Shown here piece after piece: positions 9,091-50,350 of a stretch of DNA of 64,000 nt. The notes beneath the pieces were generated by a model, which saw nothing but the letters and a program-made list of their open reading frames with translations, was not told where the DNA came from and did not search any database. Made by a program: the position numbers and the translations under genes. This stretch comes from Artemia franciscana (lineage: Eukaryota > Arthropoda > Branchiopoda > Anostraca > Artemiidae). Every line of letters starts with the position of its first letter. Position 1 is the stretch's first letter. The stretch lies in the NCBI RefSeq assembly GCF_032884065.1, contig NC_088867.1, forward strand, positions 31,822,593 to 31,886,592, given 5' to 3'.

Positions 9091-9092
<2 letters not shown>

Positions 9093-9426: not shown

Positions 9427-9612
9427 TCATTCATTTTTCTTTGACAATTCGGCTTTTCCATTCTTTTCAGCAGCGTTTTTGTCAGCCGTGGCAGCTACTT
9501 TTCCACTTACGGCGCGTTGCATAGCATCAAAAATACCGCCCATAAAAACGGCACAGAACAAGTTTTCAAATGGCAAGAATGGGTCATGGATTCCAAGAAG
9601 AAGAGATGATAG
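9427..9612 (-). CDS. TMEM38: TRIC/TMEM38 terminal coding exon (left arm)
   Basis: On the minus strand an acceptor (AATTTCAG) at the 9612 side opens a phase-0 exon of 61 codons plus stop. It begins LSSLLLGIHDPFLPFENLFC and continues AVFMGGIFDAM, the last membrane segment and end of the trimeric intracellular cation channel family. TRIC forms homotrimeric potassium-permeable channels in the ER/SR membrane that balance charge during calcium release. The tail is lysine- and alanine-rich and ends KKNE, matching the C-terminal KKxx ER-retrieval pattern. The next exon upstream on this strand (13457-13542) is truncated, so this copy may not be joined to an intact gene. The right-arm twin is 49759-49944. 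Confidence 0.92.
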   Translation of the reverse strand, partial: LSSLLLGIHDPFLPFENLFCAVFMGGIFDAMQRAVSGKVAATADKNAAEKNGKAELSKKNE

Positions 9613-12299
9613 CTGAAATTTGTACAAAAAAGGTTGATTAATTTACCTATTGGAATCAAAAGACTAGCTCACCCAAAGTTGCAAATTTAAGAGACTTCAT
9701 ATTTTTGAAGTATATGGTTGTCATGTAAATAGGATTTGTTTCCAAAAAATTACTATCACAAGAACGATATGAAATAACCTCTCATATGATGCTTAAACTG
9801 AAAGTAAAACACAAAAAAAAAAACAAGTAAATAAAGAAGACGTATTTGGTTAAGAAAGAAGAAGAAGAAAAATCCAGATACATAAAGTCAGGATATCAAA
9901 AACAAATAGAACCAGTAAAATTTATGGATTAATTAAACCGATTAATAAAAAAAAGGGTAAACAAAGAAAATAGAAAAAAACAAAAGAAAAACTAAAAGAA
10001 CAGAAAATGCGTTTGGATTAAAATAAAGTTGGTTGACCGTGATGAAAAAGTTGAGAGTCATGACTAATTGAAAATAAAAACAAAGCCAAGACAGATAGTT
10101 TTAGTGAGAGGCAAAGCTGACATAAGCCTCTTTCCGAATTACATAAAAATGATCGCATTTCACTTGTTCGATAGATAGTAAAAATACTTGAAAAATATTA
10201 GTAAAAAACAGATCATACACATGACATAGAAAACCCGAAATAGCAAAATGAAAACTATAGCAATTTCTGGTAAAAAGGGGGAGGCAGAAGAAAAATGGGA
10301 AGGAGGTTCAATTATTTAACATATTGATTATTTAGAGAAAAGAAGTTCTTTATGGGGATTTTGTTGAAGCAGAAGGACAGAAATGAAGTATAGGAGGAAA
10401 ATGACAAGGGAAAAGTGAATTGTTCCGGGTTATGGAGGACCCTATCTGCACTAAGGAAATTTCATTTCTCCGCTTTACTTCTCCTTTGCTCTACAATGAT
10501 TATATTGGTAGTGCGAAGAAGCAAGATGCAAGCCCTCATTAAAGATACATATCTTAGATACGTTTCGTAAGAGCATCTCCTTGCCTTTTTATGACTTACT
10601 AAAAATAATAGAGCCTCAATTGGCCCGAAGAGCACAATAATAAAAAAAAAAAAGTAAGAGAGGAGTCTTGGCCCTAAAAACTGAATTTTCAAGGCAGTTA
10701 GCCATGATCACATTCCTACACAAAAACCAATGTGCAACTACACTATTAAAATTAGTAGCAAGAGACAGCAGTGGAAGTATGTTGGATCAGGCATATACCT
10801 ATACTTTTTTCCAATAGAGGAGGGGGGACTTGTCTAAACAGATAAAAAAAACTGACAAATTATAAGATATTTATCGAAATCTGCTTAAGTATTGAGATCT
10901 AGAGTGAACGGGTCAAGAGCCCTCCCTCTCCTCCTCTTTCCGAATATTTGACTAATTCAAATATCACAATTCAATGGATGTACGTACACTATAAACTAAA
11001 AATCAGAAGTTGTGTACATGATTACCTACAACTAGCAATCATAAATAGAGGAAGACATCCACATCCCTTCCAGCCTTTTAAACTTCATACTTGAGCTGCT
11101 TAGAAACAAATAGTTTATGTAACCGTCCTCCCCGCTACATGTTTAGAGAGCAAGTTCTTCTGAAAACACAAATCAAGGAGGCCCTTATGTCTGTATTGTA
11201 AGCCATCAGACTCAATATTCGCGGTTTCCACCTTCAGTGACCAAAGCCCTGCTGAATTGTCAACCCTGAACTTTGGCAAAAATACCTAAAAAAGTTCATC
11301 TTCCTTTAATGCTATTTCAATAGGACCATTTTGCTCACAAGGTGCGTTACCTGATCAGGCACAACACTGATAAGGTTAAGCCACCTCAGATCCTCGACCG
11401 CAACGTTAGTATTCCAGCTCGATTGGATCGATCTTGTTTCTCAGAAATTCTTCATGTCTCCCTTTTTTTGCAGAAGCTTAGAGACACGAGTCAGCTTTCT
11501 ATTTTATTGTCCGAGGACTAATTAAAAAGAAAAAAATAATTTAGTTCATTCACCAATATATTCCTTCTATGACTAAAACTGAAAATAATTATGAAGAGAT
11601 AATGGATGAATTGGGTAACCGGTGATAAAAGCCAACCACCGGAGGCCCCAAAGGCTTTTGATAGGTCAGCTAAAAATTAAGAAGCTAACCAGCCAATTAA
11701 AAGCCAAAATGGTTTAAATGCAATAAAACGGTACGTCTAAAAAAACCCATTCTAATCAAATGCAGCTATTTAAGTAAATGGCAATTTTACATAATTACAC
11801 CAGGAAGCTTTACCAGCTCCCCAGTGAATAAATGGAAAAAAAAAAACAGCAAGTGCCCTACTTTCATCAGTAATGGTGGGAATTCTTTTCGAGAAGAGAC
11901 CTCTGTAAAATGCTAATGTAATTACTTCCAACAGCTCCTTCAAAATCTCCAATAAACACAATAAAACATGTAATCCAACTAATCCTTAAGTGTTTGAAAG
12001 TTGAAACATCAATTCCCTAAGCTGAGAAGAAGCATTACAATCAATCCGATTCCCCCGAAAAATCATAAAAGCCCGATGATGATATACCAGCCGACAGTAA
12101 TTATTAAGAGACCCTTTAAATTCAAGCCATTTTAAAGTTGCTTTCGGGTCTGTGCATGGATACACTGTGTAGTATGCTATGAGAAGTGAAGTCTCTTCGA
12201 AGTTCAAATGACTAAAGTACACTTATTCTGGAGCAGAAACCAGCATTAGCATCAATGAAGATAGTCTCAAAAATATTATTGATTAAGAGAATGCACCAA
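9613..12299. other. TRIC intron, non-coding
   Basis: Intron between the duplicated exon and the terminal exon. A- and G-rich low-complexity stretches lie at 9800-10120. I recognise no gene; the 76-codon frame at 10462-10692 and those at 11770-12222 have no motif I can defend, though the latter abut the LINE remnant and may be part of it. Confidence 0.5.
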
Positions 12300-12840
12300 A
12301 ACATATCTCGTCTTCCAACCTTTTCAAATTTTATCACTGAATGGATACTGAAGGTCATTTGGTAGTAGATGTGCGGTGGTAATCCCCTTTTAACTTCAAA
12401 TATCTTGACTGTTTCGATGACGTTGACATCCAAGTGGAATTTGTCAAGGAAGCCCAACGAATGGTCAGTGTTGCTAAGGTGTCAAAGACCAAATCGTCAC
12501 TAATTCTACTGTCAAAGGCCAAATCGAAAAGTATCCCTGGAATAGACGATACCGTGGTTTCACTTAACAAGAATAATATAGAAGAAGTACATTTTACAGA
12601 ATACCTGATCGATTATCAATGCTCACCGGGAAGTCCTTGAAGATCTCAATGTGCCATCCCCTTAGAGGAGCCAGGTTATGTTTTCTAATGTTTAAATTTA
12701 AAAATGTTTCTGCAGACAAAATATGGATCTTTTTACAGGCTAAGCTCTGCGTTTACAATGTTGAAGGCCTATCGAATCTCCATACGGTTACAAAACCTGG
12801 GTGATGGATGCTTGTCAGGCATATTCTCGGAAAACTCTTC
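12300..12840 (+). pseudogene. LINE reverse transcriptase remnant
   Basis: Read on the plus strand across several frames, the order fits the second half of a non-LTR reverse transcriptase. A helix resembling the one after the VRQGC motif (FSNFITEWILKVIW) comes first. The catalytic position follows as LDCFDDVDIQ where active copies have YADD. Next are EFVKEAQRMVSVA and, further on, SKAKSKSIPG leading to a VSLNxxxIEEVxxFxYL-like stretch. Finally PYGYKTWVMDA stands where active elements have LYGSETW. Several frameshifts and the altered catalytic aspartate pair make it inactive. It is intronic to TRIC, on the opposite strand. Mirror copy about 46534-47074. Confidence 0.6.
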
Positions 12841-12917
12841 AGCAGAGGTGTATAGGCCATATTTTAGGACGTAGTTAATCAGAAGATCCAGTAAAGTTAT
12901 TGAATAAAAAAACAAAA

Positions 12918-13456
12918 CAAGTTGTTTCAACTGAAAGTAAGGAGCAACATTTAAACTTAAAACGAACAGAAATTATTACGTATGTGAGGGAGGTTGCTCC
13001 TCCTCAAAACCTCACTCTTTACGCTAAAGTTTTCTGTACATTTAAAAAAAGCTTTTTATAATTATAATTAAACGAACACTGTTTCGGGAGTCAGAATTGG
13101 GACAGAATTCAAATTTTAGCGTAAAGAGCGAGGTGTTGAGGAGCAGCCCCCCTAATGTATGTAATAGTTTTGTTCGTTTTGAGTTTTCATGTTACTCCTT
13201 ACTCTCAGTTGAAAAAACTTGTTTGTTTTTTTATTTAATTTCTGATGTTTTTTTTAAGTAATGCCAGTAAATCTGGGCACATCTCCACGGATAAACCCCT
13301 CCTCCCCATGGATTCATTCTCTAGACAATCAAACCATTGTGAAAATTTTCCTCACACAATTACCCATAGCATCTCTACACATAAAATTGAGCCAGCAATG
13401 AGAAAGCAAGACATAAGAAGAATTTCGTATAGGAATGCTGGCAAATTCCCCTAGTA
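12918..13456 (-). repeat. Foldback repeat (member b), truncated by the junction at 13456
   Basis: Inverted arms at about 12927-13030 and 13119-13217, around a spacer of about 90 bp, match member a closely. One arm contains CTCACTCTTTACGCTAAAG and the mirrored arm contains TTAGCGTAAAGAGCGAGG. Its body is cut off at 13456, where the text joins directly to a TRIC exon. The right arm keeps the body (45140-46460). Confidence 0.75.
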
Positions 13457-13542
13457 TAGACAAGGCATGTGGTGCACTGATGTAGTCTGTTTTCTTGTCA
13501 ATCACAAACACAATAGCAGCAGCGATGCAAGCCTTCGTTGGG
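13457..13542 (-). pseudogene. TMEM38: TRIC/TMEM38 exon, truncated copy 5b
   Basis: On the minus strand a normal acceptor (TTTTCTAATTTTAG) leads into PTKACIAAAIVFVIDKKTDY then ISAPHAL. Compared with the intact exon at 44119-44239 this copy has lost one base in the codon run after CCACATG, and then breaks off. At 13456 it joins foldback-repeat DNA, so the segment GIVLFFVYF and the splice donor are missing. The missing text equals the right-arm-only stretch 44206-45917. Without a donor it cannot splice to the terminal exon at 9612. Either a damaged allele or an assembly error; the exon identity itself is secure. Confidence 0.9.
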
Positions 13543-13782
13543 CTAAAATTAGAAAATCATCAATTAATCTATACCGAAAGGAAGATACAAAAATACAAAC
13601 GGCAGAGACGAAAAAGAGACACTGAACAAAAGAAACAGAGAAAAAAAAAGAACTAGCAAAAAAAAAAATCCATGTCATGTTTTTCAATAGCCAGATTATG
13701 AAAAGAATAATTATTTACACTCAATCAACTGAAGCAACAGCGAAAGAAATGTCCAGTTTTGAAATTTCCACCCTGCTAAGAT
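13482..13782. repeat. About 302-bp direct repeat, left copy
   Basis: Matches 23947-24249 in the same orientation. It covers the 5' part of a TRIC exon, its acceptor and 240 bp of upstream intron. The two copies bracket the LINE plus R block (13783-23946). Confidence 0.9.
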
Positions 13783-14358
13783 AAAATAAAATAGAATTAA
13801 TAATAGTATAATATGCGCGATCTGAATAGGGGAAGGGGTGTCTCCGAGGTTAGTACAAGGACAACCCTGCAGAAAAAAGATGGCCTAAAAAATTTATTTG
13901 GCCGTTCTTTTGGCTTCGTTATTTATGATTAGCCAAAGTTTAAGAGATGTATTCCTAAATGGATCTGATACCACATTCAGATGCAAGGATTTGGGCGCTA
14001 TTTTCGATGTGACAATTTTCAAACGAATGTTTTCACATTGGTAAGATTCATAGATCCTTAGATCTTATGAAGAAATCATAAGATTTTTCTGACAGCTTTA
14101 GAGGATATCTCGAAAAAATCTCTGGTTAAAATAATGAAAAAATCGTTAAACAAGACTGCAATAAGACTCGCATGAATTCACCGAGCCTTCAACAATAAAA
14201 TAGATATATCTATATATATAAAAATAAGTTGTCTGTGGATCGTGGATCAGGTGACGTCATGTTTCGGCTGACGTCATGAAATTAGTTGCCATCATTTTTG
14301 CTTTGAAGGTGACGTCATTCAAGTTATATAAGACATATGTTCGCGTAGAATTCTATTA

Positions 14359-14685
14359 ATGTTTAAGTTTACAATGACTGATGAAGATGCTCAAAGAGTC
14401 TATGCCAAAAAACTTGCTGCTGATAGAGAAAGTCAGAAAAGAAAGCGTGCCGAGGAATCAAAAGAACAGCAAGGAAACAGGCTTGAGGCTAAAGAACGCA
14501 AAACCGCGCAGTTAGATGAAGATCCACCTGGACAGCGAGAGTCAAAACATATTAAAACTGAAAATGATAGCGATGATGATTGGGTTTGGGATTTTGACTT
14601 GGATAAGGTCATCAATGACTACCAGATTTTAGTTAAAAAAACAAAGGTTCGGCGATATGTATTTCATAGTGAAGCTGAAAAATAA
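14359..14685 (+). CDS. Helitron N-terminal charged protein fragment
   Basis: A 108-codon frame that starts MFKFTMTDEDAQRVYAKK. Residues 15-65 are almost all charged or glutamine (KRKRAEESKEQQGNRLEAKE), a predicted helical, coiled-coil-like stretch. An acidic patch with DSDDDWVWDFDLD follows. Highly charged N-terminal leaders of this sort precede the Rep domain in animal Helitron proteins. Here the frame stops before any Rep motif (HUH). It sits 150 bases inside the 5' end. Whether it is translated is unknown. An identical copy is at 42969-43295 on the minus strand. Confidence 0.55.
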   Translation: MFKFTMTDEDAQRVYAKKLAADRESQKRKRAEESKEQQGNRLEAKERKTAQLDEDPPGQRESKHIKTENDSDDDWVWDFDLDKVINDYQILVKKTKVRRYVFHSEAEK

Positions 14686-14869
14686 AGAAGAAAAAGAAAA
14701 CTGAAAAAAGAAAAATTACAGACTGGGATACCGGGACACAAATGACGACCGGGACACAGGGAATATAAATGGAGACCAGGACACAGGTATTTAAGAATAT
14801 CGTTCAGAGACAAATTTTTAATTGTAAGAAGACCGTTGAAAGAGAAATTTCTAATTGTAAAATGACTGA

Positions 14870-16053
14870 AAAACCTACAATGGCAACGGTACCACCATCG
14901 AAGTAGATAGCCAGTGGGTTTACGGCCAACCTACCATCTTCAAAGATACCACGATAGGAAGACTCTACACCGTTCACCCCAATCAACATGAATGCTTCTT
15001 TCTACGCCTGCTTTTGGTGAATGTACCCGGTCCGACATCCTTTGAGTATTTGAGAACTGTAAACGGTACTATACATGACACTTACCGTAGTGCATGCCAA
15101 GCTCTGAATTTATTGGAGAATGACCAACACTGGGATAACTGCATCAATGACGCGTGCGAAACGTCAACCCCAAGTCAAATTCGTACACTTGCTCTCCATC
15201 AGCTCCTACAGAGTTATGGGAAAAATATAAGTCAAAAATGTCCGAAGATATACTCCATCGAAAACAGTTAGAGACGTCAGAAATGACTTTTGATTTTACA
15301 TCAGAAATTTATAACGACACTTTAGTTATTATAGAAGATTTGTGCGTACGTATGGCAAACAAACCTCTTCAGGATTTGGGAATGCCTTCACCTAACCGTA
15401 TCGCTGCTGTTTCGACATGTGTAGAATTGGATCGTGAACAAAGTTACAGTACGAGTGATCTATTGTCGTATGTACAAAATAACATTTACAAGTTAACGTC
15501 GGAACAAAAAGACATTTATGATACGATAGACTCAATTTCAGGACGTATACAACTACCTGCTAATTTCTGTAGTTTAGTGACGTCCAAAAATGAACTGATT
15601 GAAAAAGTATTTCCGAATATTCTAAAAAATTATAAAAATAATAAATGGCTTTTAGTTATTATAGAAGATTTGTGCGTACGTATGGCAAACAAACCTCTTC
15701 AGGATTTGGGAATGCCTTCACCTAACCGTTTCGCTGCTGTTTCGACATGTGTAGAATTGGATCGTGAACAAGGTAAGGCTGTTCTTATTCCTCGCATTCC
15801 CATGATTCCAACGGATCTGCCTTTTCAATTTAAAAGATTGCAATTCCCAATTCGATTAGCATTTGCAATCACCATTAACAAAGCTCAAGGTCAATCATTA
15901 GAAAAATGTGGTATAGATCTTAATACTGATTGTTTTTCCCATGGACAATTGTACGTTGCATGTTCGAGGGTCGGTAAACCTGACAATCTATTTATATGCA
16001 GCGACAATTGGACAGCGAAGAATGTTGTATATTCGCAAGTTTTACGCAGTTAA
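14870..16053 (+). pseudogene. Helitron PIF1-type helicase, scrambled remnant
   Basis: The frame beginning about 14870 reads GRLYTVHPNQHECFFLRLLL then VNVPGPTSFEYLRTVNG and TYRSACQALNLLENDQHWD, the standard lead-in to the Helitron helicase. Near 15190 about 20 bases are missing relative to family members (RTL then CSPSAPTEL), shifting the frame. The next frame (15154-16053) runs from PTELWEKYKSKMSEDILHRK to TSEQKDIYDTI. The ATPase core (motifs I-III) is absent. A 121-bp block (15321-15441) is repeated at 15651-15771, and then the C-terminal helicase motifs follow: FAITINKAQGQSLEKCGIDL and GQLYVACSRVG. Lacking the Walker motifs, it cannot be an active helicase. Mirror copy 41594-42777. Confidence 0.85.
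15321..15771 (+). repeat. 121-bp internal duplication in the Helitron helicase
   Basis: 15321-15441 and 15651-15771 are identical except for one base that changes Ile to Phe (NRIAAV versus NRFAAV). In the right-arm Helitron both copies read NRIAAV, so the substitution is specific to the left arm. Confidence 0.95.
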
Positions 16054-16080
16054 TTTGTATTGTATCCATCTATCTATCTA

Positions 16081-16445
16081 TCTATATAAAAACGAGTTGT
16101 GTGTATGCATGTTTGTTTGTTTGTAAAAAGAGCGTTTGCATATGACGTCATTATTAGTGCATACGGCTTTGTATATGCACAGACAATGGGAAAGCCAAGA
16201 ATGTTGTATATTCGCAATTTTTACGTAGTTTAACTCCTGCAGACGAAATGAATGCTTGCCTGAAAAATTCTAATTTATGGGCACACGTAAAAATATTAAA
16301 ATTAACTACAAATATGCGTGTCCGATTGCAAAACGATGATTCTGGTCAAACATTTCCAGATCAATTGCTGGCAATTGGAAACGGAAAGCTTCCAGTAGTG
16401 GGAAAGCCAAAAATGTTGTATATTCGCAATTTTTACGTAGTTTGA
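16081..16445 (+). pseudogene. Internal second Helitron 5' end and displaced helicase fragment
   Basis: TCTATATAAAAACGAG at 16081 imitates the element's own 5' terminus. After it, 16245-16402 encodes CLKNSNLWAHVKILKLTTNM, RVRLQNDDSG and LLAIGNGKLPV, a piece that normally lies in the middle of the helicase, before the C-terminal motifs that here end at 16053. The phrase AATGTTGTATATTCGCAA occurs three times (about 16020, 16200, 16413), each followed by a TTTTACG(C/T)AGTT tail. This looks like a composite built from several Helitron copies. Mirror at about 41202-41566. Confidence 0.75.
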
Positions 16446-16609
16446 AACACATATATAAATCTATCTATATTCACAGGTGGGACACAACTACAATGGCGCG
16501 TAACTAATATGGCGCGTAACGACTTACGCGCGCGGGGGGGCTTGGGGGGTCGCGAAGCGCCCCACCAACTAGGTGTTGGGGTGGCGCGAAGCGCCACCCC
16601 AACAGCTAG

Positions 16610-17580
16610 TAGTATATATGTATCTACCAAGCTTAACAGACAGCACACAGTACTACAATATATGGCCGTCATTAAGAACTATATATGAAAGTCACACAGG
16701 AACCAGCAGCACTAAATTGCGCGGTGAGAATGTTGTAGGCTTGCAAGTACTTTGAATATTACGAAGAGTTAAAAAGCCAAGAACTACTCATAAAGTCCTG
16801 GGACGCATTTTTTTTTGTAAGCACAGGTTTAACTAAATCGTGGTTTTTGAAGCTGGGTTTGCGACCATTTAGACAAGAGTTCGCAATGGATCAGAAAAAA
16901 AAAACTACCCTTACATTCAACAAGCTCATTGCAATTATTGAGTTACTTTCAAAAGCGCTTATTAAACCAATTAAATTAGACCTTTGTTTTATGTGATTCA
17001 GAACTCAATAGCCTACAATTCCTCCTTTTCAAGATAGAAGATTCTTGATGTATTTATGTATCAGGATCAATTTAGAAATTTTCATCATTAGAATCTTTCT
17101 TGGTGCTAAAGGAGTAGCAAGATTTTTAACCCTAATGTCTTTATTTCAATTTCAACTGTATTATTTGATACAAAAGGAAAAGCGACCACTAAACATAAGA
17201 GGAAGTTTGATCACAAGATTTAAGCCTTAAAACAAGAGTTAAACTGTAAAATTTGTATTGCTGTCAAAACGGCATTCAACACAGAACGATAATTGCATTT
17301 ATTCAATAAGTAATAGCAATTAATAACAATACGCTTTACTGAACATGGAATGAACTTTTACGTAAGAAGAACCTTTTATTAATTCACTAACATCAATTTC
17401 AACCCAATTTACTTACAAATATTCTAATAAAACCTTTAAAATAAAGAAGCATATATAAAATAACAACGAATGAAAAAATTAGTCTCCATTAATAAAAATT
17501 GAAACTTAACTTATTTTTAAATATAAGACTATCGTAATGTTAAGGGGAACCAAAACGCTAAAAAAGAAAAAAAAAAAAAA
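16610..17580. other. R block spacer
   Basis: AT-rich sequence shared by all three R copies. No gene recognised; a 61-codon frame at 17045-17230 is preserved in every copy but has no motif. Confidence 0.45.
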
Positions 17581-17581
17581 A

Positions 17582-19625
17582 ACAAGAGCTAAGAGCTCAT
17601 ATGGCACTTGTGACGAGATTGGAAGAGCCAAGAGGCAAGAGCTCATATGGCATGATCTCTGGCAAAATTCTAAGAATCAATAGATTGCTTTAAAAGGAAA
17701 ATCAGAGGCTTAATGCCGGTCGGGATTTAAAATAAGAGCTCTGAGTCACAAGGTCCTTCTAAACATCAAAATTCATTAAGATCACTCATAAGTTAAAAAT
17801 ACCTCAATTTTTCTAATTTTTCCTCTCTCTTCAGCCCCCTAGATGGTTGAATCAGGGAAAACGACTTTATGAAGTCAATTTGTGCAGCTCCCTGACACGC
17901 CTACTAATTTTCATCGCCCTAGCACGTCCAGAAGCACCAAACTTGCCAAAGCACTGAACCCTACCCCCTAACCCCCCCCCCCCCAAAGAGAGTGGATCCA
18001 GTCCAGTTATGTCAATCACGTATCTACGACATTTATAAGCGTTTTCCAAGATTTCCCGTTTCCCCCTCCAAATCCCTCCAATATCAACAGATCTGGTCGG
18101 GATTTGAAATAAGAGCTCTGAGACATGAGTTCCTTCTAAATATGAAATTTCATTAAGATCCAGTCACCTGTTCTTAAGTTAAAATACCTCAATTTTTCTA
18201 ATTTTTCCAAATTAATAACCCCCAGCTCCCCTAAAGAGAACGGATCCGTTCCAATTATATCAGTCACGCATCTATAACTTGTGCTTATTCTTCCAATCAA
18301 GTTTCATCCCGATCTCTCCACTCTAAGGGTTTTCAAAGATTTCCGGTTTCCCCCAATGTCACCGGATGCGGTCAGATTTAAAATTAGAGTTTTAAAGCAC
18401 AAGCTCCTTCTAAAGATCAAATTTCATTAAGATCTGATCACCCGTTCGCAAGTTACAAATACCTCATTTTTTTCTAATTTTCCGAATTACTCCCCTCCCC
18501 CCAACTCCACCAAAGATAGCGGATCCGGTCCGGTTATTTCCGTCATATATCTTGAACTTGTGATTATTCTTCCAACCAAGTTTCATCCTGATCTCTCCGC
18601 TTTAAGCGTTTTCCCAGATTTCCCGCCCCCTAATGGTCCGGTCGGGATTTAAAATAAGAGATCTGAGTTACGAGGTCCTTCTAAATATGAAATTTCATTA
18701 AGATCCGAACACTCCTTCGTAAGTTAAAAATACCTCATTTTTTCTATTTTTTTAGAATTGCCCCCCCCCCCCACAAACTCCCACAAATAGAGCAGATCCG
18801 TCCAGGTTATGTCAATCACGTATCTAGGACTTGTGCTTATTTTTCCCACCAAGCTTAATCCCGTCCCTCCACTCTAAGCGTTTTCGAAGGTTTTAGGTCC
18901 CTCCCCCAACTCCCCCCAATGTCACTGGATCCGGTCGGGATTTAAAATAAGAGCTCTGAGACACGATATCCTTCCAAACATCAAATTTCATTAAGATCCA
19001 ATACCTCCTTCGTAAGTTGAAAATACCTCATTTTTTCCGATTTTCCAGAATTAGCCCCCCTCCAACTCCCCCAAAGAGAGCAGATCCGTTCCGATTATGT
19101 CAATCACGTATCTAGAACTTGTGATTATTTTCCCCACCAGGTTTCATCCCGACCCCCCTACTCTAAGCGTTTTCCAATATTTTAGCCCCCCCCCTCAACT
19201 CCCCACAATGTCACCGGATCCAGTCGGGATTTAAAAGAAGAGCTCTGAGACACCATATTCTTCCAAACATCAAATTTCATTAAGGTCCGGTCACTCCTTC
19301 GTAAGTTAAAAATACCTCAATTTTTCTAATTTTTCAGAACTAACCCCTCCCCCAACTCCCCCAAACAGAGCAGATCCGTTCCGGTTATGTCAATAACGTA
19401 TCCCACATCCCCCCAGATTTAACCATCCCCCAGATGGTCGAATCTGGGAAACGACAATTTCTAAGTTAATCTGGTCTGGTTCCTGATACGCCTGCCAAAT
19501 TTCATCGTCCTAGCTTACCTGGAAGTGCCTGAAGTAGCAAAACCAGGACAGACAGACCGACAGAATTTGCGATCGCTGTATGTCACTTGATAAAAACCAA
19601 GTACCATACAAGAATTAAATCCACC
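17582..19625 (+). mobile_element. Tandem-repeat-cored element, about 2 kb, non-coding
   Basis: Left end: an A run, then CAAGAGCTAAGAGCTCATAT with AGAGCTCATATGGCA repeated 46 bp later. Core: six degenerate monomers of about 270-290 bp (the first spacing is 377 bp), each opening with a GGTCGGGATTTAAAATAAG-like phrase near 17718, 18095, 18370, 18640, 18933 and 19222. Right end: CAGACAGACCGACAGAATTT, GCGATCGCTGTATGTCAC and a weak hairpin TCACTTGATAAAAACCAAGT. A homologous copy is in the 32.9 kb R block (about 34255-36290) and a partial mirror at 39120-40080. Terminal short sequences with a tandem core recall DINE/Helentron elements, but I cannot confirm the class. Confidence 0.6.
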
Positions 19626-21560: not shown

Positions 21561-21736
21561 CAAGGGCATATCCAGGATTTTATTTCGGAGGATTTTTTTT
21601 TAGAGGGGGTTTACAAACGAGAAATTAAAAACCGCATCAAAAGTTTGTTTGTATAGATTTTTGTTACGTTTTTAGGATACAAAGACAAGACTACAGGAAA
21701 GGGTTGCACCCGAAAGCCCCACCCGGGACGGCCTTG
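21561..21736. mobile_element. MITE, 176 bp, with perfect 8-bp target duplication
   Basis: The left end is CAAGGGCATATCCAGG and the right end is the complement of CAAGGCCGTCCCGGG, imperfect terminal inverted repeats. CTTCTGAC flanks it on both sides (21553-21560 and 21737-21744), an exact 8-bp duplication as left by hAT-type transposases. No coding capacity. The second R copy has it at 38226-38400 with the same flanks. A relative without a clear right end starts at 59429 (CAAGGCCGTATCCAGG). Confidence 0.85.
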
Positions 21737-21744
21737 CTTCTGAC

Positions 21745-22170
21745 CAAAACCGTGTGTCACTTAATAATTAGGTCATTGATTTTACCTTTTTATGCAAATT
21801 CAGATTTTAAGACTTAACAAGAACAAATTAATTATTTACTAAAACGAATTTTTTATTAGTTCCAACTCCATTAAATTCCAATTTTGTTAGCGTTTTTTCT
21901 AGCTCACTTCTTTTTCCTGACTTCTTACTCTCCTGACCTTTTCCCCATTTCCTAAGGTTTTGTTAGTAGAGTATCTGCAAGAAGTCTTTGTAGCACTAAT
22001 TATTTTTGAATTTCTGCAACGCCTGCCAGGGGGTTTGATTTCCCAGAGAAAGGACAATTTTATATTAAGATAGTGAACTAGGAGAAGAGGGGGGCTCCTA
22101 AGATCAACTTGTTTGGAATCAACTGAAGCGATGCCATTTTAAACACACTATCTGGTAAAATAATATAGAA
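21745..22170. other. R block spacer before the LINE
   Basis: AT-rich, no recognisable gene or repeat end. Confidence 0.4.
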
Positions 22171-38800: not shown

Positions 38801-39019
38801 TTTTAAACACACTATCTGGTAAAATAATATAGAAAGTTTATTTTGAATTTTTCCCACGCACAAAGATGCAGTTTATACGAATTGACAGTCCCAGTTTCAG
38901 CCTAAGGAGCTATTCACCACCAAGCTTCAGCATGTTTCGGCAAAGAGTTGGTGCAGAATTGTCAAGGATGCTTTACCGTCGTCCAAGGGGACTTAAATTC
39001 CTACTCTACATACTGACGG
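32868..39019 (+). repeat. R block, copy 2 (Helitron-free)
   Basis: Corresponds to 13785-14208 joined directly to 16610-22355. It contains the same tandem-repeat-cored element (about 34255-36290), the paired hairpins (near 37464-37540), the 176-bp-type MITE (38226-38400, flanks CTTCTGAC) and the first 150 bp of the LINE, then stops at the gap. The empty Helitron site is at 33291/33292. Differences from copy 1 are scattered substitutions and homopolymer length changes. Confidence 0.93.
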
Positions 39020-39119
39020 NNNNNNNNNNNNNNNNNNNNNNNNNNNNNNNNNNNNNNNNNNNNNNNNNNNNNNNNNNNNNNNNNNNNNNNNNNNNNNNNN
39101 NNNNNNNNNNNNNNNNNNN
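39020..39119. other. Assembly gap, 100 N
   Basis: Exactly 100 N, the usual placeholder for a scaffold join of unknown size. Both sides are R-block sequence but in opposite orientation, and the right side begins inside the tandem array, so the join rests on repeats. Confidence 0.99.
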
Positions 39120-41037: not shown

Positions 41038-43453
41038 CTAGCTGTTGGGGTGGCGCTTCGCGCCACCCCAACACCTAGTTGGTGGGGTGCTTCGCGACCC
41101 CCCAAGCCCCCCCGCGCGCGTAAGTCGTTACGCGCCATATTAGTTACGCGCCATTGTAGTTGTGTCCCACCTGTGAATATAGATAGATTTATATATGTGT
41201 TTCAAACTACGTAAAAATTGCGAATATACAACATTTTTGGCTTTCCCACTACTGGAAGCTTTCCGTTTCCAATTGCCAGCAATTGATCTGGAAATGTTTG
41301 ACCAGAATCATCGTTTTGCAATCGGACACGCATATTTGTAGTTAATTTTAATATTTTTACGTGTGCCCATAAATTAGAATTTTTCAGGCAAGCATTCATT
41401 TCGTCTGCAGGAGTTAAACTACGTAAAAATTGCGAATATACAACATTCTTGGCTTTCCCATTGTCTGTGCATATACAAAGCCGTATGCACTAATAATGAC
41501 GTCATATGCAAACGCTCTTTTTACAAACAAACAAACATGCATACACACAACTCGTTTTTATATAGATAGATAGATAGATGGATACAATACAAATTAACTG
41601 CGTAAAACTTGCGAATATACAACATTCTTCGCTGTCCAATTGTCGCTGCATATAAATAGATTGTCAGGTTTACCGACCCTCGAACATGCAACGTACAATT
41701 GTCCATGGGAAAAACAATCAGTATTAAGATCTATACCACATTTTTCTAATGATTGACCTTGAGCTTTGTTAATGGTGATTGCAAATGCTAATCGAATTGG
41801 GAATTGCAATCTTTTAAATTGAAAAGGCAGATCCGTTGGAATCATGGGAATGCGAGGAATAAGAACAGCCTTACCCTGTTCACGATCCAATTCTACACAT
41901 GTCGAAACAGCAGCGATACGGTTAGGTGAAGGCATTCCCAAATCCTGAAGAGGTTTGTTTGCCATACGTACGCACAAATCTTCTATAATAACTAAAAGCC
42001 ATTTATTATTTTTATAATTTTTTAGAATATTCGGAAATACTTTTTCAATCAATTCATTTTTGGACGTCACTAAACTACAGAAATTAGCAGGTAGTTGTAT
42101 ACGTCCTGAAATTGAGTCTATCGTATCATAAATGTCTTTTTGTTCCGACGTTAACTTGTAAATGTTATTTTGTACATACGACAATAGATCACTCGTACTG
42201 TAACTTTGTTCACGATCCAATTCTACACATGTCGAAACAGCAGCGATACGGTTAGGTGAAGGCATTCCCAAATCCTGAAGAGGTTTGTTTGCCATACGTA
42301 CGCACAAATCTTCTATAATAACTAAAGTGTCGTTATAAATTTCTGATGTAAAATCAAAAGTCATTTCTGACGTCTCTAACTGTTTTCGATGGAGTATATC
42401 TTCGGACATTTTTGACTTATATTTTTCCCATAACTCTGTAGGAGCTGATGGAGAGCAAGTGTACGAATTTGACTTGGGGTTGACGTTTCGCACGCGTCAT
42501 TGATGCAGTTATCCCAGTGTTGGTCATTCTCCAATAAATTCAGAGCTTGGCATGCACTACGGTAAGTGTCATGTATAGTACCGTTTACAGTTCTCAAATA
42601 CTCAAAGGATGTCGGACCGGGTACATTCACCAAAAGCAGGCGTAGAAAGAAGCATTCATGTTGATTGGGGTGAACGGTGTAGAGTCTTCCTATCGTGGTA
42701 TCTTTGAAGATGGTAGGTTGGCCGTAAACCCACTGGCTATCTACTTCGATGGTGGTACCGTTGCCATTGTAGGTTTTTCAGTCATTTTACAATTAGAAAT
42801 TTCTCTTTCAACGGTCTTCTTACAATTAAAAATTTGTCTCTGAACGATATTCTTAAATACCTGTGTCCTGGTCTCCATTTATATTCCCTGTGTCCCGGTC
42901 GTCATTTGTGTCCCGGTATCCCAGTCTGTAATTTCTCTTTTTTCTTTTTTCAGTTTTCTTTTTCTTCTTTATTTTTCAGCTTCACTATGAAATACATATC
43001 GCCGAACCTTTGTTTTTTTAACTAAAATCTGGTAGTCATTGATGACCTTATCCAAGTCAAAATCCCAAACCCAATCATCATCGCTATCATTTTCAGTTTT
43101 AATATGTTTTGACTCTCGCTGTCCAGGTGGATCTTCATCTAACTGCGCGGTTTTGCGTTCTTTAGCCTCAAGCCTGTTTCCTTGCTGTTCTTTTGATTCC
43201 TCGGCACGCTTTCTTTTCTGACTTTCTCTATCAGCAGCAAGTTTTTTGGCATAGACTCTTTGAGCATCTTCATCAGTCATTGTAAACTTAAACATTAATA
43301 GAATTCTACGCGAACATATGTCTTATATAACTTGAATGACGTCACCTTCAAAGCAAAAATGATGGCAACTAATTTCATGACGTCAGCCGAAACATGACGT
43401 CACCTGATCCACGATCCACAGATCCACAGACAACTTATTTTTATATATATAGA
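41038..43453 (-). mobile_element. Helitron, right-arm copy
   Basis: Same element as 14209-16609, reversed: CTAGCTG and the 13-bp hairpin at the left, complement of the TC end at 43452-43453. It has the same scrambled helicase (ORFs 41594-42493 and 42376-42633) and charged N-terminal frame (42969-43295). It is slightly longer, with an extra short repeat of GATCCACA near 43418-43430. Host A/T flanks are identical, so both arms inherited one insertion. Confidence 0.92.
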
Positions 43454-44118
43454 TATATCTATTTTATTGTTGAAGGCTCGGTGAATTCATGCGAGTCTTA
43501 TTGCAGTCTTGTTTAACGATTTTTTCATTATTTTAACCAGAGATTTTTTCGAGATATCCTCTAAAGCTGTCAGAAAAATCTTATGATTTCTTCATAAGAT
43601 CTAAGGATCTATGAATCTTACCAATGTGAAAACATTCGTTTGAAAATTGTCACATCGAAAATAGCGCCCAAATCTTTGCATCTGAATGTGGTATCAGATC
43701 CATTTAGGAATACATCTCTTAAACTTTGGCTAATCATAAATAACGAAGCCAAAAGAACGGCCAAATAAATTTTTTAGGCCATCTTTTTTCTGCGGGGTTG
43801 TCCTTGTACTAACCTCGGAGACACCCCTTCCCCTATTCAGATCGCGCATATTATACTATTATTAATTCTATTTTATTTTATCTTAGCAGGGTGGAAATTT
43901 CAAAGCTGGACATTTCTTTCGCTGTTGCTTCAGTTGATTGAGTGTAAATAATTATTCTTTTCATAATCTGGCTATTGAAAAACATGACATGGATTTTTTT
44001 TTTGCTAGTTCTTTTTTTTTCTCTGTTTCTTTTGTTCAGTGTCTCTTTTTCGTCTCTGCCGTTTGTATTTTTGTATCTTCCTTTCGGTATAGATTAATTG
44101 ATGATTTTCTAATTTTAG
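43454..44118. other. R-block edge and TRIC intron end
   Basis: Mirror of 13543-14208. Polypyrimidine-rich near the acceptor TTTTCTAATTTTAG. Short open frames here are intronic. Confidence 0.6.
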
Positions 44119-44239
44119 CCCAACGAAGGCTTGCATCGCTGCTGCTATTGTGTTTGTGATTGACAAGAAAACAGACTACATCAGTGCACCACATGCCCTT
44201 GTCTACTTCGGAATCGTTCTTTTCTTCGTTTACTTCAAG
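44119..44239 (+). CDS. TMEM38: TRIC/TMEM38 coding exon 5, intact copy
   Basis: A 121-bp exon between acceptor TTTTCTAATTTTAG and donor GTGACC. The first base completes a Phe codon with the TT left by the exon at 24591-24767, giving PTKACIAAAIVFVIDKKTDY, ISAPHALVYFG and IVLFFVYFK, and the exon ends in phase 0 as the terminal exon requires. This covers the last cytoplasmic loop and the sixth membrane helix region of the family. It is the only full copy among three in the window. Its upstream partner exons are not on this strand within the window; the sequence before it is R-block DNA leading back to the gap. Confidence 0.95.
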
Positions 44240-45917
44240 GTGACCTTTTAATCTTTTTGTTACATTTTTTATAGGATGTAGCTTAAGCATAGAACAGTCG
44301 CTCTGTAATATTCGAACCTTTTTCTTTGTTAAGAGGTAAGTATTCTATTTAGAGAAGAATAGAGTAACTTCTTGTTCACAACAAGACATAAACACTGTTA
44401 ACACTGTAAACGAAAACGCAAATTCCTTATGGTATACTTAAGCGCATTACCATATTTAAGTAGGCTACTATAGTGGGTATATTTTTTTATTTTATTACAA
44501 AAAAAAAAATCTTGACGCACTTGCAAGCCATGTAGAAGCTGATCATGGCACCCACTGATGTCAATAACTCTTCCCCGTGCTAACAAGATCATGAGCAGGG
44601 GGCTCCAGTTGGATTTGACGGTGTTATGTCATATCGCCTTCTGTCTTTGGTTCCTTTTTTTCTATGGTGCCGTCCTGGCTGAGTGGTTAGCGCGTGGCAT
44701 GGGAATTCTGTGCCCAAGGGGCACGGGTTCAATCCCAGTTGTGACCAGTTATTTAGTTTGGGACGGGGGTCCGTGGCGTGACTCTGTAAGCTCAGCCAGA
44801 GTCGACCCGGCTCTAAATGGGTACCTGGAGAAATCTGGGGAAGGTAAGCAAGAAGGGTTTGCGACAAAACAGGATGGTTGACCCCCAACCCCCCATTGCA
44901 CTTCCTGGCTGAAGGGCCATGAAACGGATATCAGCACCGCTGGTTTGGACCTTAAGGGTCTATTGCCGTCTTACCTACTTACCTCTCTTTTTCTGTGGGG
45001 GTGAGGGGCAGGCAATGCAGGCGTCTCTATGCAAGCGTCTCTATGCATTGTCAGGTATGTGTGTAGCATGGCTTAACTCTCTTAAATGATTCTTTAATGA
45101 GTCTGGAGGGCAAAGGCGTTCCCTCGTCTTCTGCTAGTCAAACAGTTCGTGGTAACAAACTGTAAGTAAGGAGCGACCAGGCTCAATAGCAACCCAGACT
45201 CTGAAAAACGTAGTTTTGACACCAGTAGATATACTAAAAGAATCGAATTTTTATGTTAATTTTAAATACTTAAGTTTCATTACGTTTAGTCTTACCCATC
45301 CATGATTACAAGCCTGAGAAAATTTGCCTGATTTTCGAAAAAAAGGGAGAAAATCCCCCTAAAAGTCATAGAATCTTAATGAAAACCACAACATCAGATT
45401 CAGCATATCAAAGAACCCTACTGTAGAGGTTTCAAGCTTCCATCTGAAAAAATGTAGAATTTTGTAATTTTTCCAGAAGAGAGATCACGGATTCGTGTTT
45501 TTTTATTTCAGGGGTTATTGTATCGACCCAGTGGTCCTAGAATATCTAAAAAGGGCTCATTCGAGTAGAAATTAAAGTTTTTAGTGTCCTTTTTAAGTGA
45601 CAAAAAATGGGAGGGTAAGTAGGCCCCATCCCTCGGTCTTTTTTTTAAAGTGGTTTGATCAAAACTTTGAGAGCCGTTTTGTTCAGCTCAGTTGAAAGGC
45701 TGAATAACTGTACCTTTGGAGATATTATGACCCCCCCCCCCCCACAGCTTGTGGGATAAAGTATTTAAGTTAAAAAATTTGCCCATTGTTCACAGATATT
45801 ATTTGTTATTGGTAAGTATGCATACATTTTTCGGGAAAGGGGGGCAAATTTTCTGCTGGTGGAATTTTACATGGGGAGGGAAGTTTTCAGGGTGTGAATT
45901 TTTCAGGGTAAATTTTA
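44206..45917 (+). other. Right-arm-only segment (missing from the left arm)
   Basis: About 1.71 kb with no counterpart in the left arm, where the text joins 13456|13457. It comprises the end of TRIC exon 5, its donor, intron, a SINE and the body of a foldback repeat. The edges share only a TA, suggesting end-joining deletion in the left arm rather than insertion here, since exon 5 is complete with it. Confidence 0.85.
44667..44990 (+). repeat. tRNA-derived SINE
   Basis: The head has an A box (TGGCTGAGTGG at 44676-44686) followed by TTAGCGC, and a B box (GGTTCAATCC at 44726-44735), with tRNA-like spacing and a Leu/Ser-type long variable region. A unique body follows (CGACCCGGCTCTAAATGGGT, then GGAGAAATCTGGGGAAGG) and a tail of CTTACCTACTTACC. 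Pol III internal promoter structure is clear. Diverged relatives are at 1450-1548 (head) and 3925-4022 (tail). I do not recognise a named central domain with certainty. Confidence 0.8.
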
Positions 45918-46460
45918 TACTAGGGGAATTTGCCAGCATTCCTATACGAAATTCTTCTTATGTCTTGCTTTCTCATTGCTGGCTCAATTTTATGTGTAGA
46001 GATGCTATGGGTAATTGTGTGAGGAAAATTTTCACAATGGTTTGATTGTCTAGAGAATGAATCCATGGGGAGGAGGGGTTTATCCGTGGAGATGTGCCCA
46101 GATTTACTGGCATTACTTAAAAAAAACATCAGAAATTAAATAAAAAAACAAACAAGTTTTTTCAACTGAGAGTAAGGAGTAACATGAAAACTCAAAACGA
46201 ACAAAACTATTACATACATTAGGGGGGCTGCTCCTCAACACCTCGCTCTTTACGCTAAAATTTGAATTCTGTCCCAATTCTGACTCCCGAAACAGTGTTC
46301 GTTTAATTATAATTATAAAAAGCTTTTTTTAAATGTACAGAAAACTTTAGCGTAAAGAGTGAGGTTTTGAGGAGGAGCAACCTCCCTCACATACGTAATA
46401 ATTTCTGTTCGTTTTAAGTTTAAATGTTGCTCCTTACTTTCAGTTGAAACAACTTGTTTT
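45140..46460 (+). repeat. Foldback repeat family, full member b (right arm)
   Basis: Starts near CAGTTCGTGGTAACAAACTG, then a body with GTATCGACCCAGTGGTCCTA and TCCTTTTTAAGTGAC, then the inverted-arm core at about 46155-46447 (arms around AACTGAGAGTAAGGAG and mirrored CTCCTTACTTTCAGTTG). No protein. The left arm retains only its distal 540 bp. Confidence 0.75.
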
Positions 46461-46533
46461 GTTTTTTTATTCAATAACTTTACTGGATCTTCTGATTAAC
46501 TACGTCCTAAAATATGGCCTATACACCTCTGCT

Positions 46534-47074
46534 GAAGAGTTTTCCGAGAATATGCCTGACAAGCATCCATCACCCAGGTTTTGTAACCGTATGGAGATTC
46601 GATAGGCCTTCAACATTGTAAACGCAGAGCTTAGCCTGTAAAAAGATCCATATTTTGTCTGCAGAAACATTTTTAAATTTAAACATTAGAAAACATAACC
46701 TGGCTCCTCTAAGGGGATGGCACATTGAGATCTTCAAGGACTTCCCGGTGAGCATTGATAATCGATCAGGTATTCTGTAAAATGTACTTCTTCTATATTA
46801 TTCTTGTTAAGTGAAACCACGGTATCGTCTATTCCAGGGATACTTTTCGATTTGGCCTTTGACAGTAGAATTAGTGACGATTTGGTCTTTGACACCTTAG
46901 CAACACTGACCATTCGTTGGGCTTCCTTGACAAATTCCACTTGGATGTCAACGTCATCGAAACAGTCAAGATATTTGAAGTTAAAAGGGGATTACCACCG
47001 CACATCTACTACCAAATGACCTTCAGTATCCATTCAGTGATAAAATTTGAAAAGGTTGGAAGACGAGATATGTT
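46534..47074 (-). pseudogene. LINE reverse transcriptase remnant, mirror copy
   Basis: Mirror of 12300-12840 with the same frame breaks; an intronic passenger of the right-arm TRIC copy. Confidence 0.6.
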
Positions 47075-49758
47075 TTGGTGCATTCTCTTAATCAATAATA
47101 TTTTTGAGACTATCTTCATTGATGCTAATGCTGGTTTCTGCTCCAGAATAAGTGTACTTTAGTCATTTGAACTTCGAAGAGACTTCACTTCTCATAGCAT
47201 ACTACACAGTGTATCCATGCACAGACCCGAAAGCAACTTTAAAATGGCTTGAATTTAAAGGGTCTCTTAATAATTACTGTCGGCTGGTATATCATCATCG
47301 GGCTTTTATGATTTTTCGGGGGAATCGGATTGATTGTAATGCTTCTTCTCAGCTTAGGGAATTGATGTTTCAACTTTCAAACACTTAAGGATTAGTTGGA
47401 TTACATGTTTTATTGTGTTTATTGGAGATTTTGAAGGAGCTGTTGGAAGTAATTACATTAGCATTTTACAGAGGTCTCTTCTCGAAAAGAATTCCCACCA
47501 TTACTGATGAAAGTAGGGCACTTGCTGTTTTTTTTTTCCATTTATTCACTGGGGAGCTGGTAAAGCTTCCTGGTGTAATTATGTAAAATTGCCATTTACT
47601 TAAATAGCTGCATTTGATTAGAATGGGTTTTTTTAGACGTACCGTTTTATTGCATTTAAACCATTTTGGCTTTTAATTGGCTGGTTAGCTTCTTAATTTT
47701 TAGCTGACCTATCAAAAGCCTTTGGGGCCTCCGGTGGTTGGCTTTTATCACCGGTTACCCAATTCATCCATTATCTCTTCATAATTATTTTCAGTTTTAG
47801 TCATAGAAGGAATATATTGGTGAATGAACTAAATTATTTTTTTCTTTTTAATTAGTCCTCGGACAATAAAATAGAAAGCTGACTCGTGTCTCTAAGCTTC
47901 TGCAAAAAAAGGGAGACATGAAGAATTTCTGAGAAACAAGATCGATCCAATCGAGCTGGAATACTAACGTTGCGGTCGAGGATCTGAGGTGGCTTAACCT
48001 TATCAGTGTTGTGCCTGATCAGGTAACGCACCTTGTGAGCAAAATGGTCCTATTGAAATAGCATTAAAGGAAGATGAACTTTTTTAGGTATTTTTGCCAA
48101 AGTTCAGGGTTGACAATTCAGCAGGGCTTTGGTCACTGAAGGTGGAAACCGCGAATATTGAGTCTGATGGCTTACAATACAGACATAAGGGCCTCCTTGA
48201 TTTGTGTTTTCAGAAGAACTTGCTCTCTAAACATGTAGCGGGGAGGACGGTTACATAAACTATTTGTTTCTAAGCAGCTCAAGTATGAAGTTTAAAAGGC
48301 TGGAAGGGATGTGGATGTCTTCCTCTATTTATGATTGCTAGTTGTAGGTAATCATGTACACAACTTCTGATTTTTAGTTTATAGTGTACGTACATCCATT
48401 GAATTGTGATATTTGAATTAGTCAAATATTCGGAAAGAGGAGGAGAGGGAGGGCTCTTGACCCGTTCACTCTAGATCTCAATACTTAAGCAGATTTCGAT
48501 AAATATCTTATAATTTGTCAGTTTTTTTTATCTGTTTAGACAAGTCCCCCCTCCTCTATTGGAAAAAAGTATAGGTATATGCCTGATCCAACATACTTCC
48601 ACTGCTGTCTCTTGCTACTAATTTTAATAGTGTAGTTGCACATTGGTTTTTGTGTAGGAATGTGATCATGGCTAACTGCCTTGAAAATTCAGTTTTTAGG
48701 GCCAAGACTCCTCTCTTACTTTTTTTTTTTATTATTGTGCTCTTCGGGCCAATTGAGGCTCTATTATTTTTAGTAAGTCATAAAAAGGCAAGGAGATGCT
48801 CTTACGAAACGTATCTAAGATATGTATCTTTAATGAGGGCTTGCATCTTGCTTCTTCGCACTACCAATATAATCATTGTAGAGCAAAGGAGAAGTAAAGC
48901 GGAGAAATGAAATTTCCTTAGTGCAGATAGGGTCCTCCATAACCCGGAACAATTCACTTTTCCCTTGTCATTTTCCTCCTATACTTCATTTCTGTCCTTC
49001 TGCTTCAACAAAATCCCCATAAAGAACTTCTTTTCTCTAAATAATCAATATGTTAAATAATTGAACCTCCTTCCCATTTTTCTTCTGCCTCCCCCTTTTT
49101 ACCAGAAATTGCTATAGTTTTCATTTTGCTATTTCGGGTTTTCTATGTCATGTGTATGATCTGTTTTTTACTAATATTTTTCAAGTATTTTTACTATCTA
49201 TCGAACAAGTGAAATGCGATCATTTTTATGTAATTCGGAAAGAGGCTTATGTCAGCTTTGCCTCTCACTAAAACTATCTGTCTTGGCTTTGTTTTTATTT
49301 TCAATTAGTCATGACTCTCAACTTTTTCATCACGGTCAACCAACTTTATTTTAATCCAAACGCATTTTCTGTTCTTTTAGTTTTTCTTTTGTTTTTTTCT
49401 ATTTTCTTTGTTTACCCTTTTTTTTATTAATCGGTTTAATTAATCCATAAATTTTACTGGTTCTATTTGTTTTTGATATCCTGACTTTATGTATCTGGAT
49501 TTTTCTTCTTCTTCTTTCTTAACCAAATACGTCTTCTTTATTTACTTGTTTTTTTTTTGTGTTTTACTTTCAGTTTAAGCATCATATGAGAGGTTATTTC
49601 ATATCGTTCTTGTGATAGTAATTTTTTGGAAACAAATCCTATTTACATGACAACCATATACTTCAAAAATATGAAGTCTCTTAAATTTGCAACTTTGGGT
49701 GAGCTAGTCTTTTGATTCCAATAGGTAAATTAATCAACCTTTTTTGTACAAATTTCAG
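47075..49758. other. TRIC intron, right arm
   Basis: Mirror of 9613-12299. No gene recognised. Confidence 0.5.
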
Positions 49759-49944
49759 CTATCATCTCTTCTTCTTGGAATCCATGACCCATTCTTGCCA
49801 TTTGAAAACTTGTTCTGTGCCGTTTTTATGGGCGGTATTTTTGATGCTATGCAACGCGCCGTAAGTGGAAAAGTAGCTGCCACGGCTGACAAAAACGCTG
49901 CTGAAAAGAATGGAAAAGCCGAATTGTCAAAGAAAAATGAATGA
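49759..49944 (+). CDS. TMEM38: TRIC/TMEM38 terminal coding exon (right arm)
   Basis: Acceptor AAATTTCAG, then 61 codons and a TGA at 49942-49944. Same protein as 9427-9612: LSSLLLGIHDPFLPF, ENLFCAVFMGGIFDAM, then a charged tail ending KKNE, a C-terminal KKxx ER-retrieval pattern. It lies 5.5 kb downstream of the intact exon 5 in matching phase, so these two could splice. The TGA is not followed by an obvious AATAAA until AAAGG/TTATTG-type text about 40 bp on; the poly(A) site was not determined. Confidence 0.93.
   Translation, partial: LSSLLLGIHDPFLPFENLFCAVFMGGIFDAMQRAVSGKVAATADKNAAEKNGKAELSKKNE

Positions 49945-50278: not shown

Positions 50279-50350
<72 letters not shown>
50279..50350. 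repeat. (TA)n microsatellite, right arm
   Basis: Mirror of 9022-9090 with slightly different length. Confidence 0.95.

What the first reader, a model, noticed from the sequence alone, without database searches (positions are those of the whole stretch)
9427..49944. One TRIC exon present three times, only one copy whole
The exon encoding PTKACIAAAIVFVIDKKTDY onward occurs at 23947-24007 (cut after KTDY by LINE sequence), 13457-13542 (one base lost, then cut after HAL) and 44119-44239 (whole, with donor). The exons before it exist only once, on the minus strand. On the left contig neither copy can be spliced to the terminal exon; on the right contig the good copy has no upstream exons in view. 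Either TRIC is broken or rearranged in one haplotype, or the assembly has split one gene between two misplaced haplotigs.
Basis: partly seen in the sequence, partly recalled or inferred. Interest (0 to 1): 0.75.

Follow-up and report, generated by a model that had tools for sequence, protein, structure and literature searches.

The report
Channel gene scrambled by tandem duplication
In what looks like an animal genome, a gene for an ion channel (TRIC) seems to carry an old partial tandem duplication followed by deletions, and two near-identical stretches of the locus lie head to head in the assembly, so one exon shows up three times; it is an instructive case of gene damage and possible repair, but made of ordinary parts.

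Summary
The window is two contigs (100 N at 39020-39119). Left 3397-18530 is the inverted near-identical partner of right 39120-55985 (14 substitutions in 15,124 aligned columns), best read as misplaced haplotigs. That accounts for two copies (A, left; R, right). The third (B) is not their allele: B is the odd one at 21 of 28 variable sites, and A and R share an 8.6-kb deletion (exons 2-4) and a Helitron that B lacks. Hence a tandem duplication running from inside a LINE to inside exon 5, then loss of exons 2-4 from the second unit. Exons 2-4 total 430 bp, so a message with both sets would shift frame; losing one set puts exon 4 back in phase with the distal exon 5. I infer that the R-type allele works by skipping exon 5B, and that the L allele, which also lost 1.7 kb with the exon 5A donor, is null. 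Exon 1 was not found. Reads or RNA are needed to exclude an assembly chimera. Ordinary parts, instructive combination.

The parts
29493..29649 (-). TRIC exon 2 (157 bp; acceptor TTGCAG, donor GTGCGT)
   Evidence: PF05197 8-55, E 8.8e-19; frame fits exon 3
27093..27188 (-). TRIC exon 3 (96 bp)
   Evidence: PF05197 56-87, E 1.4e-10
24591..24767 (-). TRIC exon 4 (177 bp)
   Evidence: PF05197 88-145, E 7.4e-21
23947..24007 (-). exon 5 copy B: acceptor kept, cut after KTDY; the frame reads LT and then a stop in LINE sequence
13457..13542 (-). exon 5 copy A (left contig): one G lost at 13463, 3' end and donor deleted
44119..44239 (+). exon 5 copy R (right contig): whole, acceptor and donor present
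   Evidence: PF05197 147-188, E 1e-11
44206..45915 (.). 1,710 bp present in R and missing in L at 13457/13458 (2-bp overlap TA); holds the last 34 bp of exon 5 and its donor
49759..49944 (+). TRIC terminal coding exon 6 with stop (right contig)
   Evidence: part of the composite aligned to PDB chains
9427..9612 (-). TRIC exon 6 with stop, left contig, identical to the right one
24250..32867 (.). 8.6 kb with exons 2-4, present in B and absent from A and R at the same junction
13478..23946 (.). proximal tandem unit (A), gene strand minus, from LINE interior to exon 5
23947..39019 (.). distal tandem unit (B); runs off the contig end inside the same LINE-like motif
14209..16609 (+). 2,401-bp Helitron-like insertion in A (R counterpart 41038-43453): 5' TC, 3' hairpin then CTAG|T; exact empty site in B at 33291/33292
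22306..23946 (+). degenerate LINE, cut inside its reverse transcriptase region by the exon 5 junction
   Evidence: RVT_1 at 23049-23423, E 2.9e-10; motif positions
3397..18530 (.). left arm of the inverted near-identical pair
39120..55985 (.). right arm of the inverted near-identical pair
39020..39119 (.). gap of 100 N between the two contigs

Best explanation
A single animal TRIC gene suffered a tandem duplication with breakpoints inside an upstream LINE and inside exon 5 (order in gene direction: LINE, exons 2-3-4, truncated 5B, LINE, exons 2-3-4, 5, 6). The second set of exons 2-4 was later lost by an 8.6-kb deletion, and a Helitron entered the same unit. Both haplotypes of this animal descend from that state. 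One haplotype (left) then lost a further 1.7 kb, removing the 3' end and donor of its only long exon 5. The scaffold holds the two haplotype contigs head to head with a gap. Shown: three copies, the A+R versus B grouping, shared deletion and Helitron, phases and frames. Inferred: allelism of L and R, physical reality of the LINE/exon 5 join, exons 2-4 upstream in the R haplotype, mRNA joining exon 4 to the distal exon 5 by skipping 5B, and a null L allele.
For: L vs R: 3 substitutions in 10,055 ungapped columns and 11 in 5,069; A vs B: 55 in 5,721. Three-way columns (2,621 ungapped): B odd 21, A odd 4, R odd 3; P 8e-6 against equal thirds. The 8.6-kb deletion junction and the Helitron are shared by A and R only; B has the exact empty site. 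A LINE-like motif at 22339-22380 spans the point (22355) where B reaches the contig end, and B reads the same motif up to its end, so both units begin in the same LINE; the LINE is cut inside its RT region at 23946, which a retrotransposition 3' end would not give. Exons 2-6 splice into one open frame with GT/AG sites; the composite matches C. elegans 5egi residues 53-251 at E 8.9e-73. Exons 2+3+4 = 430 bp, not a multiple of three (lengths).
Against: No reads, RNA or second assembly could be examined. The LINE/exon 5 join (23946/23947) is seen in one contig only. R's upstream exons are not in view. Exon 1 was not found, so whether the duplication is wholly inside the gene is unknown. Species unknown. 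In the three-way alignment the gap events do not favour the grouping (B odd 4, A odd 2, R odd 4). L-R divergence is very low (0.09%) and uneven (3/10,055 vs 11/5,069, Fisher p 7e-4); PMC8081667 (passages) says wrongly kept haplotype contigs arise in regions of increased haplotype divergence, which does not fit the substitutions here, though the arms do differ in structure. The segment 1-2357 lies in the opposite relative orientation in R.
Confidence: 0.58

Rival explanations
1. The left contig is an assembly chimera. A third, more diverged allele (pooled or polyploid sample) with a normal TRIC gene was joined to the A haplotype at the LINE/exon 5 point; there is no tandem duplication.
For: The join at 23946/23947 is in one contig only; both contigs end in repeats: L inside the LINE, R inside a 289-bp tandem array. 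Gap events do not separate B from A and R (4, 2, 4).
Against: A, B and R are three distinct sequences, one too many for a diploid without duplication. The two sides of the join share no word longer than 8 bp within about 200 bp, so no repeat there would mislead an assembler. Under this reading the A and R haplotypes would lack exons 2-4 altogether.
Confidence: 0.22
2. The two arms are a real inverted duplication (palindrome) in the genome, not haplotigs; the scaffold is right and the gap lies near its centre.
For: The scaffold places them so; the arms are nearly identical over 10 kb (3 substitutions), less divergence than one expects to split haplotypes.
Against: A join by 100 N between contigs that both end in repeats suits a misplaced contig; [quoted passage not shown]
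Confidence: 0.12
3. TRIC is wholly dead at this locus (a decaying pseudogene cluster) and a working copy lies elsewhere.
For: No first exon accepted in the window; two of three exon 5 copies broken.
Against: Exons 2, 3, 4, 5R and 6 are all open with GT/AG sites and fitting phases, and the composite aligns without gaps to 5egi over 199 residues, unlike a decaying gene.
Confidence: 0.08

Closest known systems
TRIC channel family (PF05197; PDB 6iyu, 6iz3 vertebrate TRIC-A and TRIC-B; 5egi and 5eik of C. elegans, listed as uncharacterized proteins and recalled as TRIC-B1/B2)
   Same: Exons 2-5 match consecutive stretches of the profile; the composite of exons 2-6 matches 5egi residues 53-251 at E 8.9e-73
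   Different: N-terminal exon not found; gene parts duplicated and deleted
Heterotype false duplications in assemblies (PMC8081667, passages read)
   Same: Near-identical contigs of one locus both kept in one scaffold around a gap
   Different: It accounts for only two of the three copies; substitution divergence is low here, and the arms differ instead by a 1.7-kb deletion and an apparent inversion
Intragenic multi-exon tandem duplications, e.g. the Dmd Dup18-30 mouse (PMC8103086, passages read)
   Same: A run of exons repeated inside one gene; removing one set restores the normal product (there by genome editing)
   Different: Here the removal would be a natural deletion, and one breakpoint lies inside an exon, leaving an exon with acceptor but no good donor

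Membership tests
TRIC channel gene (PF05197) | Profile match above the gathering score | tested here: met
   Exons 2, 3, 4, 5R: 68.2, 41.4, 75.0, 45.2 bits against cut-off 25.9. Exon 6 (71-aa ORF): no match; exon 5 already reaches position 188 of 193
TRIC channel gene (PF05197) | Continuous reading frame over splice junctions | tested here: met
   734 bp of exons 2-6 open in one frame, with exons 5 and 6 taken from R
TRIC channel gene (PF05197) | N-terminal part (about 50 residues, exon 1) | tested here: not met
   Profile search best E 0.11. Two of four local-alignment queries beat their shuffles (42 vs at most 40; 49 vs at most 44), but at wrong places or strand. Exon 1 may lie beyond the contig end
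Allelic haplotigs (L versus R) | Half read depth on each copy | not testable with these tools
   No reads held; no genome held for this window
Allelic haplotigs (L versus R) | Colinear near-identity between two contigs | tested here: met
   Inverted arms, 99.75% and 99.35%, on contigs parted by 100 N; colinearity ends at 3397/55985
Tandem partial gene duplication (A and B) | Direct repeats on one contig, more diverged than the presumed alleles | tested here: met
   55/5,721 substitutions A-B against 14/15,124 L-R; B odd at 21 of 28 sites, gap events not informative
Helitron | 5' TC, 3' hairpin and CTRR, insertion between A and T without target-site duplication, empty site (rules recalled) | tested here: met
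   TC at 14209, hairpin and CTAG ending 16609, exact empty site AATAGATATA|TAGTATATATG in B
Helitron | Rep/helicase protein domain | tested here: inconclusive
   Of three ORFs, one has a sub-cut-off helicase match (PF02689, 23.6 bits, cut-off 27) and two have none of note

The most novel reading that the evidence does not exclude
The gene was broken by a frame-shifting intragenic duplication and mended in nature by a second, independent deletion that removed the redundant exon set. It is now a working gene assembled from two units, with a leftover stop-carrying exon 5B that splicing must skip (or that acts as a poison exon), and a null allele from a third lesion segregates in the same individual.
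Probability: 0.3. Interest if true: 0.45.

Novelty: new member of a known kind. Interest (0 to 1): 0.3.

Why it matters
If true it is a readable natural case of break and compensation by two structural mutations in a conserved channel gene, with the order of steps legible in the sequence, and a warning that annotation of this scaffold could report broken TRIC fragments. If the join is an artefact, it is a useful example of how haplotigs and repeats fake gene damage.

Tried and rejected
Exon 1. Local alignment with human TMEM38A and TMEM38B N-termini and with an approximate arthropod-like N-terminus and its core, each against shuffled queries (5 and 10 shuffles), and a small profile from four N-termini. 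TMEM38A: best 42 at 54288-54344(+) and its twin 5037-5093(-), shuffles at most 40; these lie beyond the last exon. TMEM38B: best 35, shuffles 35-38. Arthropod-like: best 49 at 33533-33619(+), shuffles at most 44; it is on the strand opposite to the gene. Core: best 34, shuffles up to 42. Profile: best E 0.11 (the same 54288/5037 pair), then 0.17 at 32855-32932(-), which lies on the right strand at the edge of the 8.6-kb deletion but has no ATG in the open stretch. None accepted. The positive control was one of the four training sequences, so it shows only that the profile runs. Of 23 ATG frames of 30 codons or more on the minus strand of 29650-39019 none looked like TRIC by eye.

LINE insertion into exon 5 as cause of the cut in B: rejected, because the LINE is cut inside its RT region on that side. 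The RT reading beyond 23423 rests on motifs recognised by eye; a 22-residue piece with the PQGS motif had no Pfam match.

Insertion of the 1.7 kb into R: rejected, because it holds the conserved end of exon 5 and its donor, and a 74%-identity repeat (45214-46052) runs across its far edge.

Cryptic donors (sites with 6 or more of 9 consensus bases within about 300 bp; the gene's own four donors score 6, 6, 7, 7): in B, exon ends 23933 and 23813 both lie after the in-frame stop; in A one site (13364, score 6) leaves phase 1, while exon 6 needs phase 0.

Sequencing error as cause of the lost G at 13463: of 16 L-R gap openings 11 lie in single-base runs of eight or more; 13463 is the only one-base gap outside such a run, so it may be a true lesion near the breakpoint. 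Not certain.

Rfam at gathering threshold and ARAGORN gave nothing. Papers: four searches, two papers opened for passages. No search by species, since the species is unknown.

Full report
What is there. The window has one run of N, 39020-39119, so it is two contigs of a scaffold. A self-comparison (matches of 80 bp or more) gives three large relations. First, left 3397-13458 and 13457-18530 match right 55985-45916 and 44205-39120 in inverted orientation (99.75% and 99.35%), with 1,710 bp (44206-45915) missing on the left. Second, within the left contig 13478-22355 matches 23943-39019 directly, in three pieces of 98.4-98.6%, with 8.6 kb (24250-32867) present only in the second and 2.4 kb (14209-16609) only in the first. 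Third, 1-2357 matches 59992-62347 directly (99.7%), so this piece is inverted relative to the arms.

The gene. Peptides of exons 2, 3, 4 and 5R match Pfam TRIC in consecutive profile stretches; exon 6 has no Pfam match. Exact borders are: exon 2 29493-29649, exon 3 27093-27188, exon 4 24591-24767 (minus), exon 5 44119-44239 and exon 6 49759-49941 (plus, right contig), 157, 96, 177, 121 and 183 bp. Joined, they give one open frame, with GT donors and AG acceptors at every junction. The composite matches six PDB sequences: four named TRIC type A or B, and two of C. elegans listed as uncharacterized (5egi, E 8.9e-73, residues 53-251; 5eik), which I recall as TRIC-B1 and B2. About 50 N-terminal residues are missing; three sets of searches of the window gave no acceptable exon 1 (the scores, including two that beat their shuffles, are under Tried and rejected).

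The three exon 5 copies. R is whole. A is identical to R up to ...SAPHAL except for one lost G, then jumps 1.7 kb downstream with a 2-bp overlap; its frame runs on for 43 codons after HAL and stops, with no in-frame donor to exon 6 in the scan made. B keeps the acceptor and 61 bp, identical to R, then meets LINE sequence and reads two codons and a stop.

Which copies are alleles. On 2,621 ungapped three-way columns (three segments, ends trimmed by about 10 bp at some borders) B is the odd one at 21 sites, A at 4 and R at 3 (P 8e-6 for 21 or more of 28 at one third, sites taken as independent). Gap events in the same alignments do not discriminate (B 4, A 2, R 4). A and R also share the 8.6-kb deletion with the same junction letters (I read two A's as filler) and the Helitron (5' TC, 3' hairpin, CTAG|T), for which B has the exact empty site. 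A and R are therefore closest relatives, which fits alleles, and B is an older paralog. As A, B and R are distinct, a diploid needs a duplication to hold them. A pooled or polyploid sample is the escape, and I keep it as a rival.

How the duplication was made. The left contig continues A upstream into a LINE on the plus strand: a pre-RT motif at 22339-22380, an RVT_1 match in 23049-23423, later RT-like motifs at 23557-23586 and 23650-23673, and a last motif at 23891-23944. Only RVT_1 is a tool match; the other motif names are recalled, and one piece put to Pfam gave nothing. B reaches the contig end (39019) inside the same pre-RT motif, equivalent to 22355 in A. So both units start in the same LINE, and the unit junction joins the LINE RT region to the interior of exon 5. 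A LINE insertion would end in its 3' tail there, so this is a rearrangement breakpoint. The two sides share no word longer than 8 bp near it. The contigs also break where one expects: left inside the LINE, right inside sequence of a 289-bp tandem array.

What it does to the gene. Exons 2-4 sum to 430 bp. If both sets had been spliced in, the message would shift frame. The deletion in the second unit leaves exon 1 (wherever it is), B exons 2-4, and the distal exons 5 and 6 in phase, provided exon 5B is skipped; its candidate donors lie after its stop. This is inference: no RNA was available. The left haplotype has in addition lost the donor of exon 5A, so I expect it to be null. If exon 1 lies inside the duplicated unit instead (not found there), the second gene copy would simply have been truncated by the deletion and the compensation story weakens.

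Alleles or palindrome. L and R differ at 3 of 10,055 and 11 of 5,069 sites, plus 16 gap openings, 11 of them in single-base runs. False duplications, including wrongly placed haplotype contigs, are a well described assembly error (PMC8081667, passages read); but that paper ties them to regions of increased haplotype divergence, which the low substitution count here does not fit. A real palindrome is not excluded, and the uneven divergence (p 7e-4) is unexplained.

Verdict. Observation confirmed; the two offered explanations are each part of it. The parts (haplotig misplacement, partial tandem duplication, deletion, Helitron) are known kinds. The combination, with a possible natural repair of a frame-breaking duplication, gives moderate interest.

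Noticed in passing
1-2357 and 59992-62347: Near-identical (99.7%) in direct orientation while the neighbouring arms are inverted: an apparent inversion of more than 2.3 kb between the two contigs, with the left breakpoint in a 100-bp tandem repeat (2335-2550) inside an ORF with weak ankyrin-repeat matches.
   Followed up: partly
59980-60417 (+): ORF with a GIY-YIG endonuclease domain (E 8.3e-5), perhaps a Penelope-like element remnant (element type recalled); most of it lies in the stretch copied in the left contig from base 1.
   Followed up: no
14209-16609 and 41038-43453: 2.4-kb Helitron-like element with decayed ORFs and an internal 121-bp direct repeat (15321-15441/15651-15771); the exact empty site is visible at 33291/33292.
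   Followed up: partly
18637-19402, 34767-36071, 39120 onward: 289-290-bp tandem array, of different reported length in the two units; the right contig starts inside sequence of this kind.
   Followed up: no
3397-13458 versus 13457-18530: Left-right divergence is about seven times lower downstream of exon 5 than upstream (3/10,055 against 11/5,069); cause unknown.
   Followed up: partly
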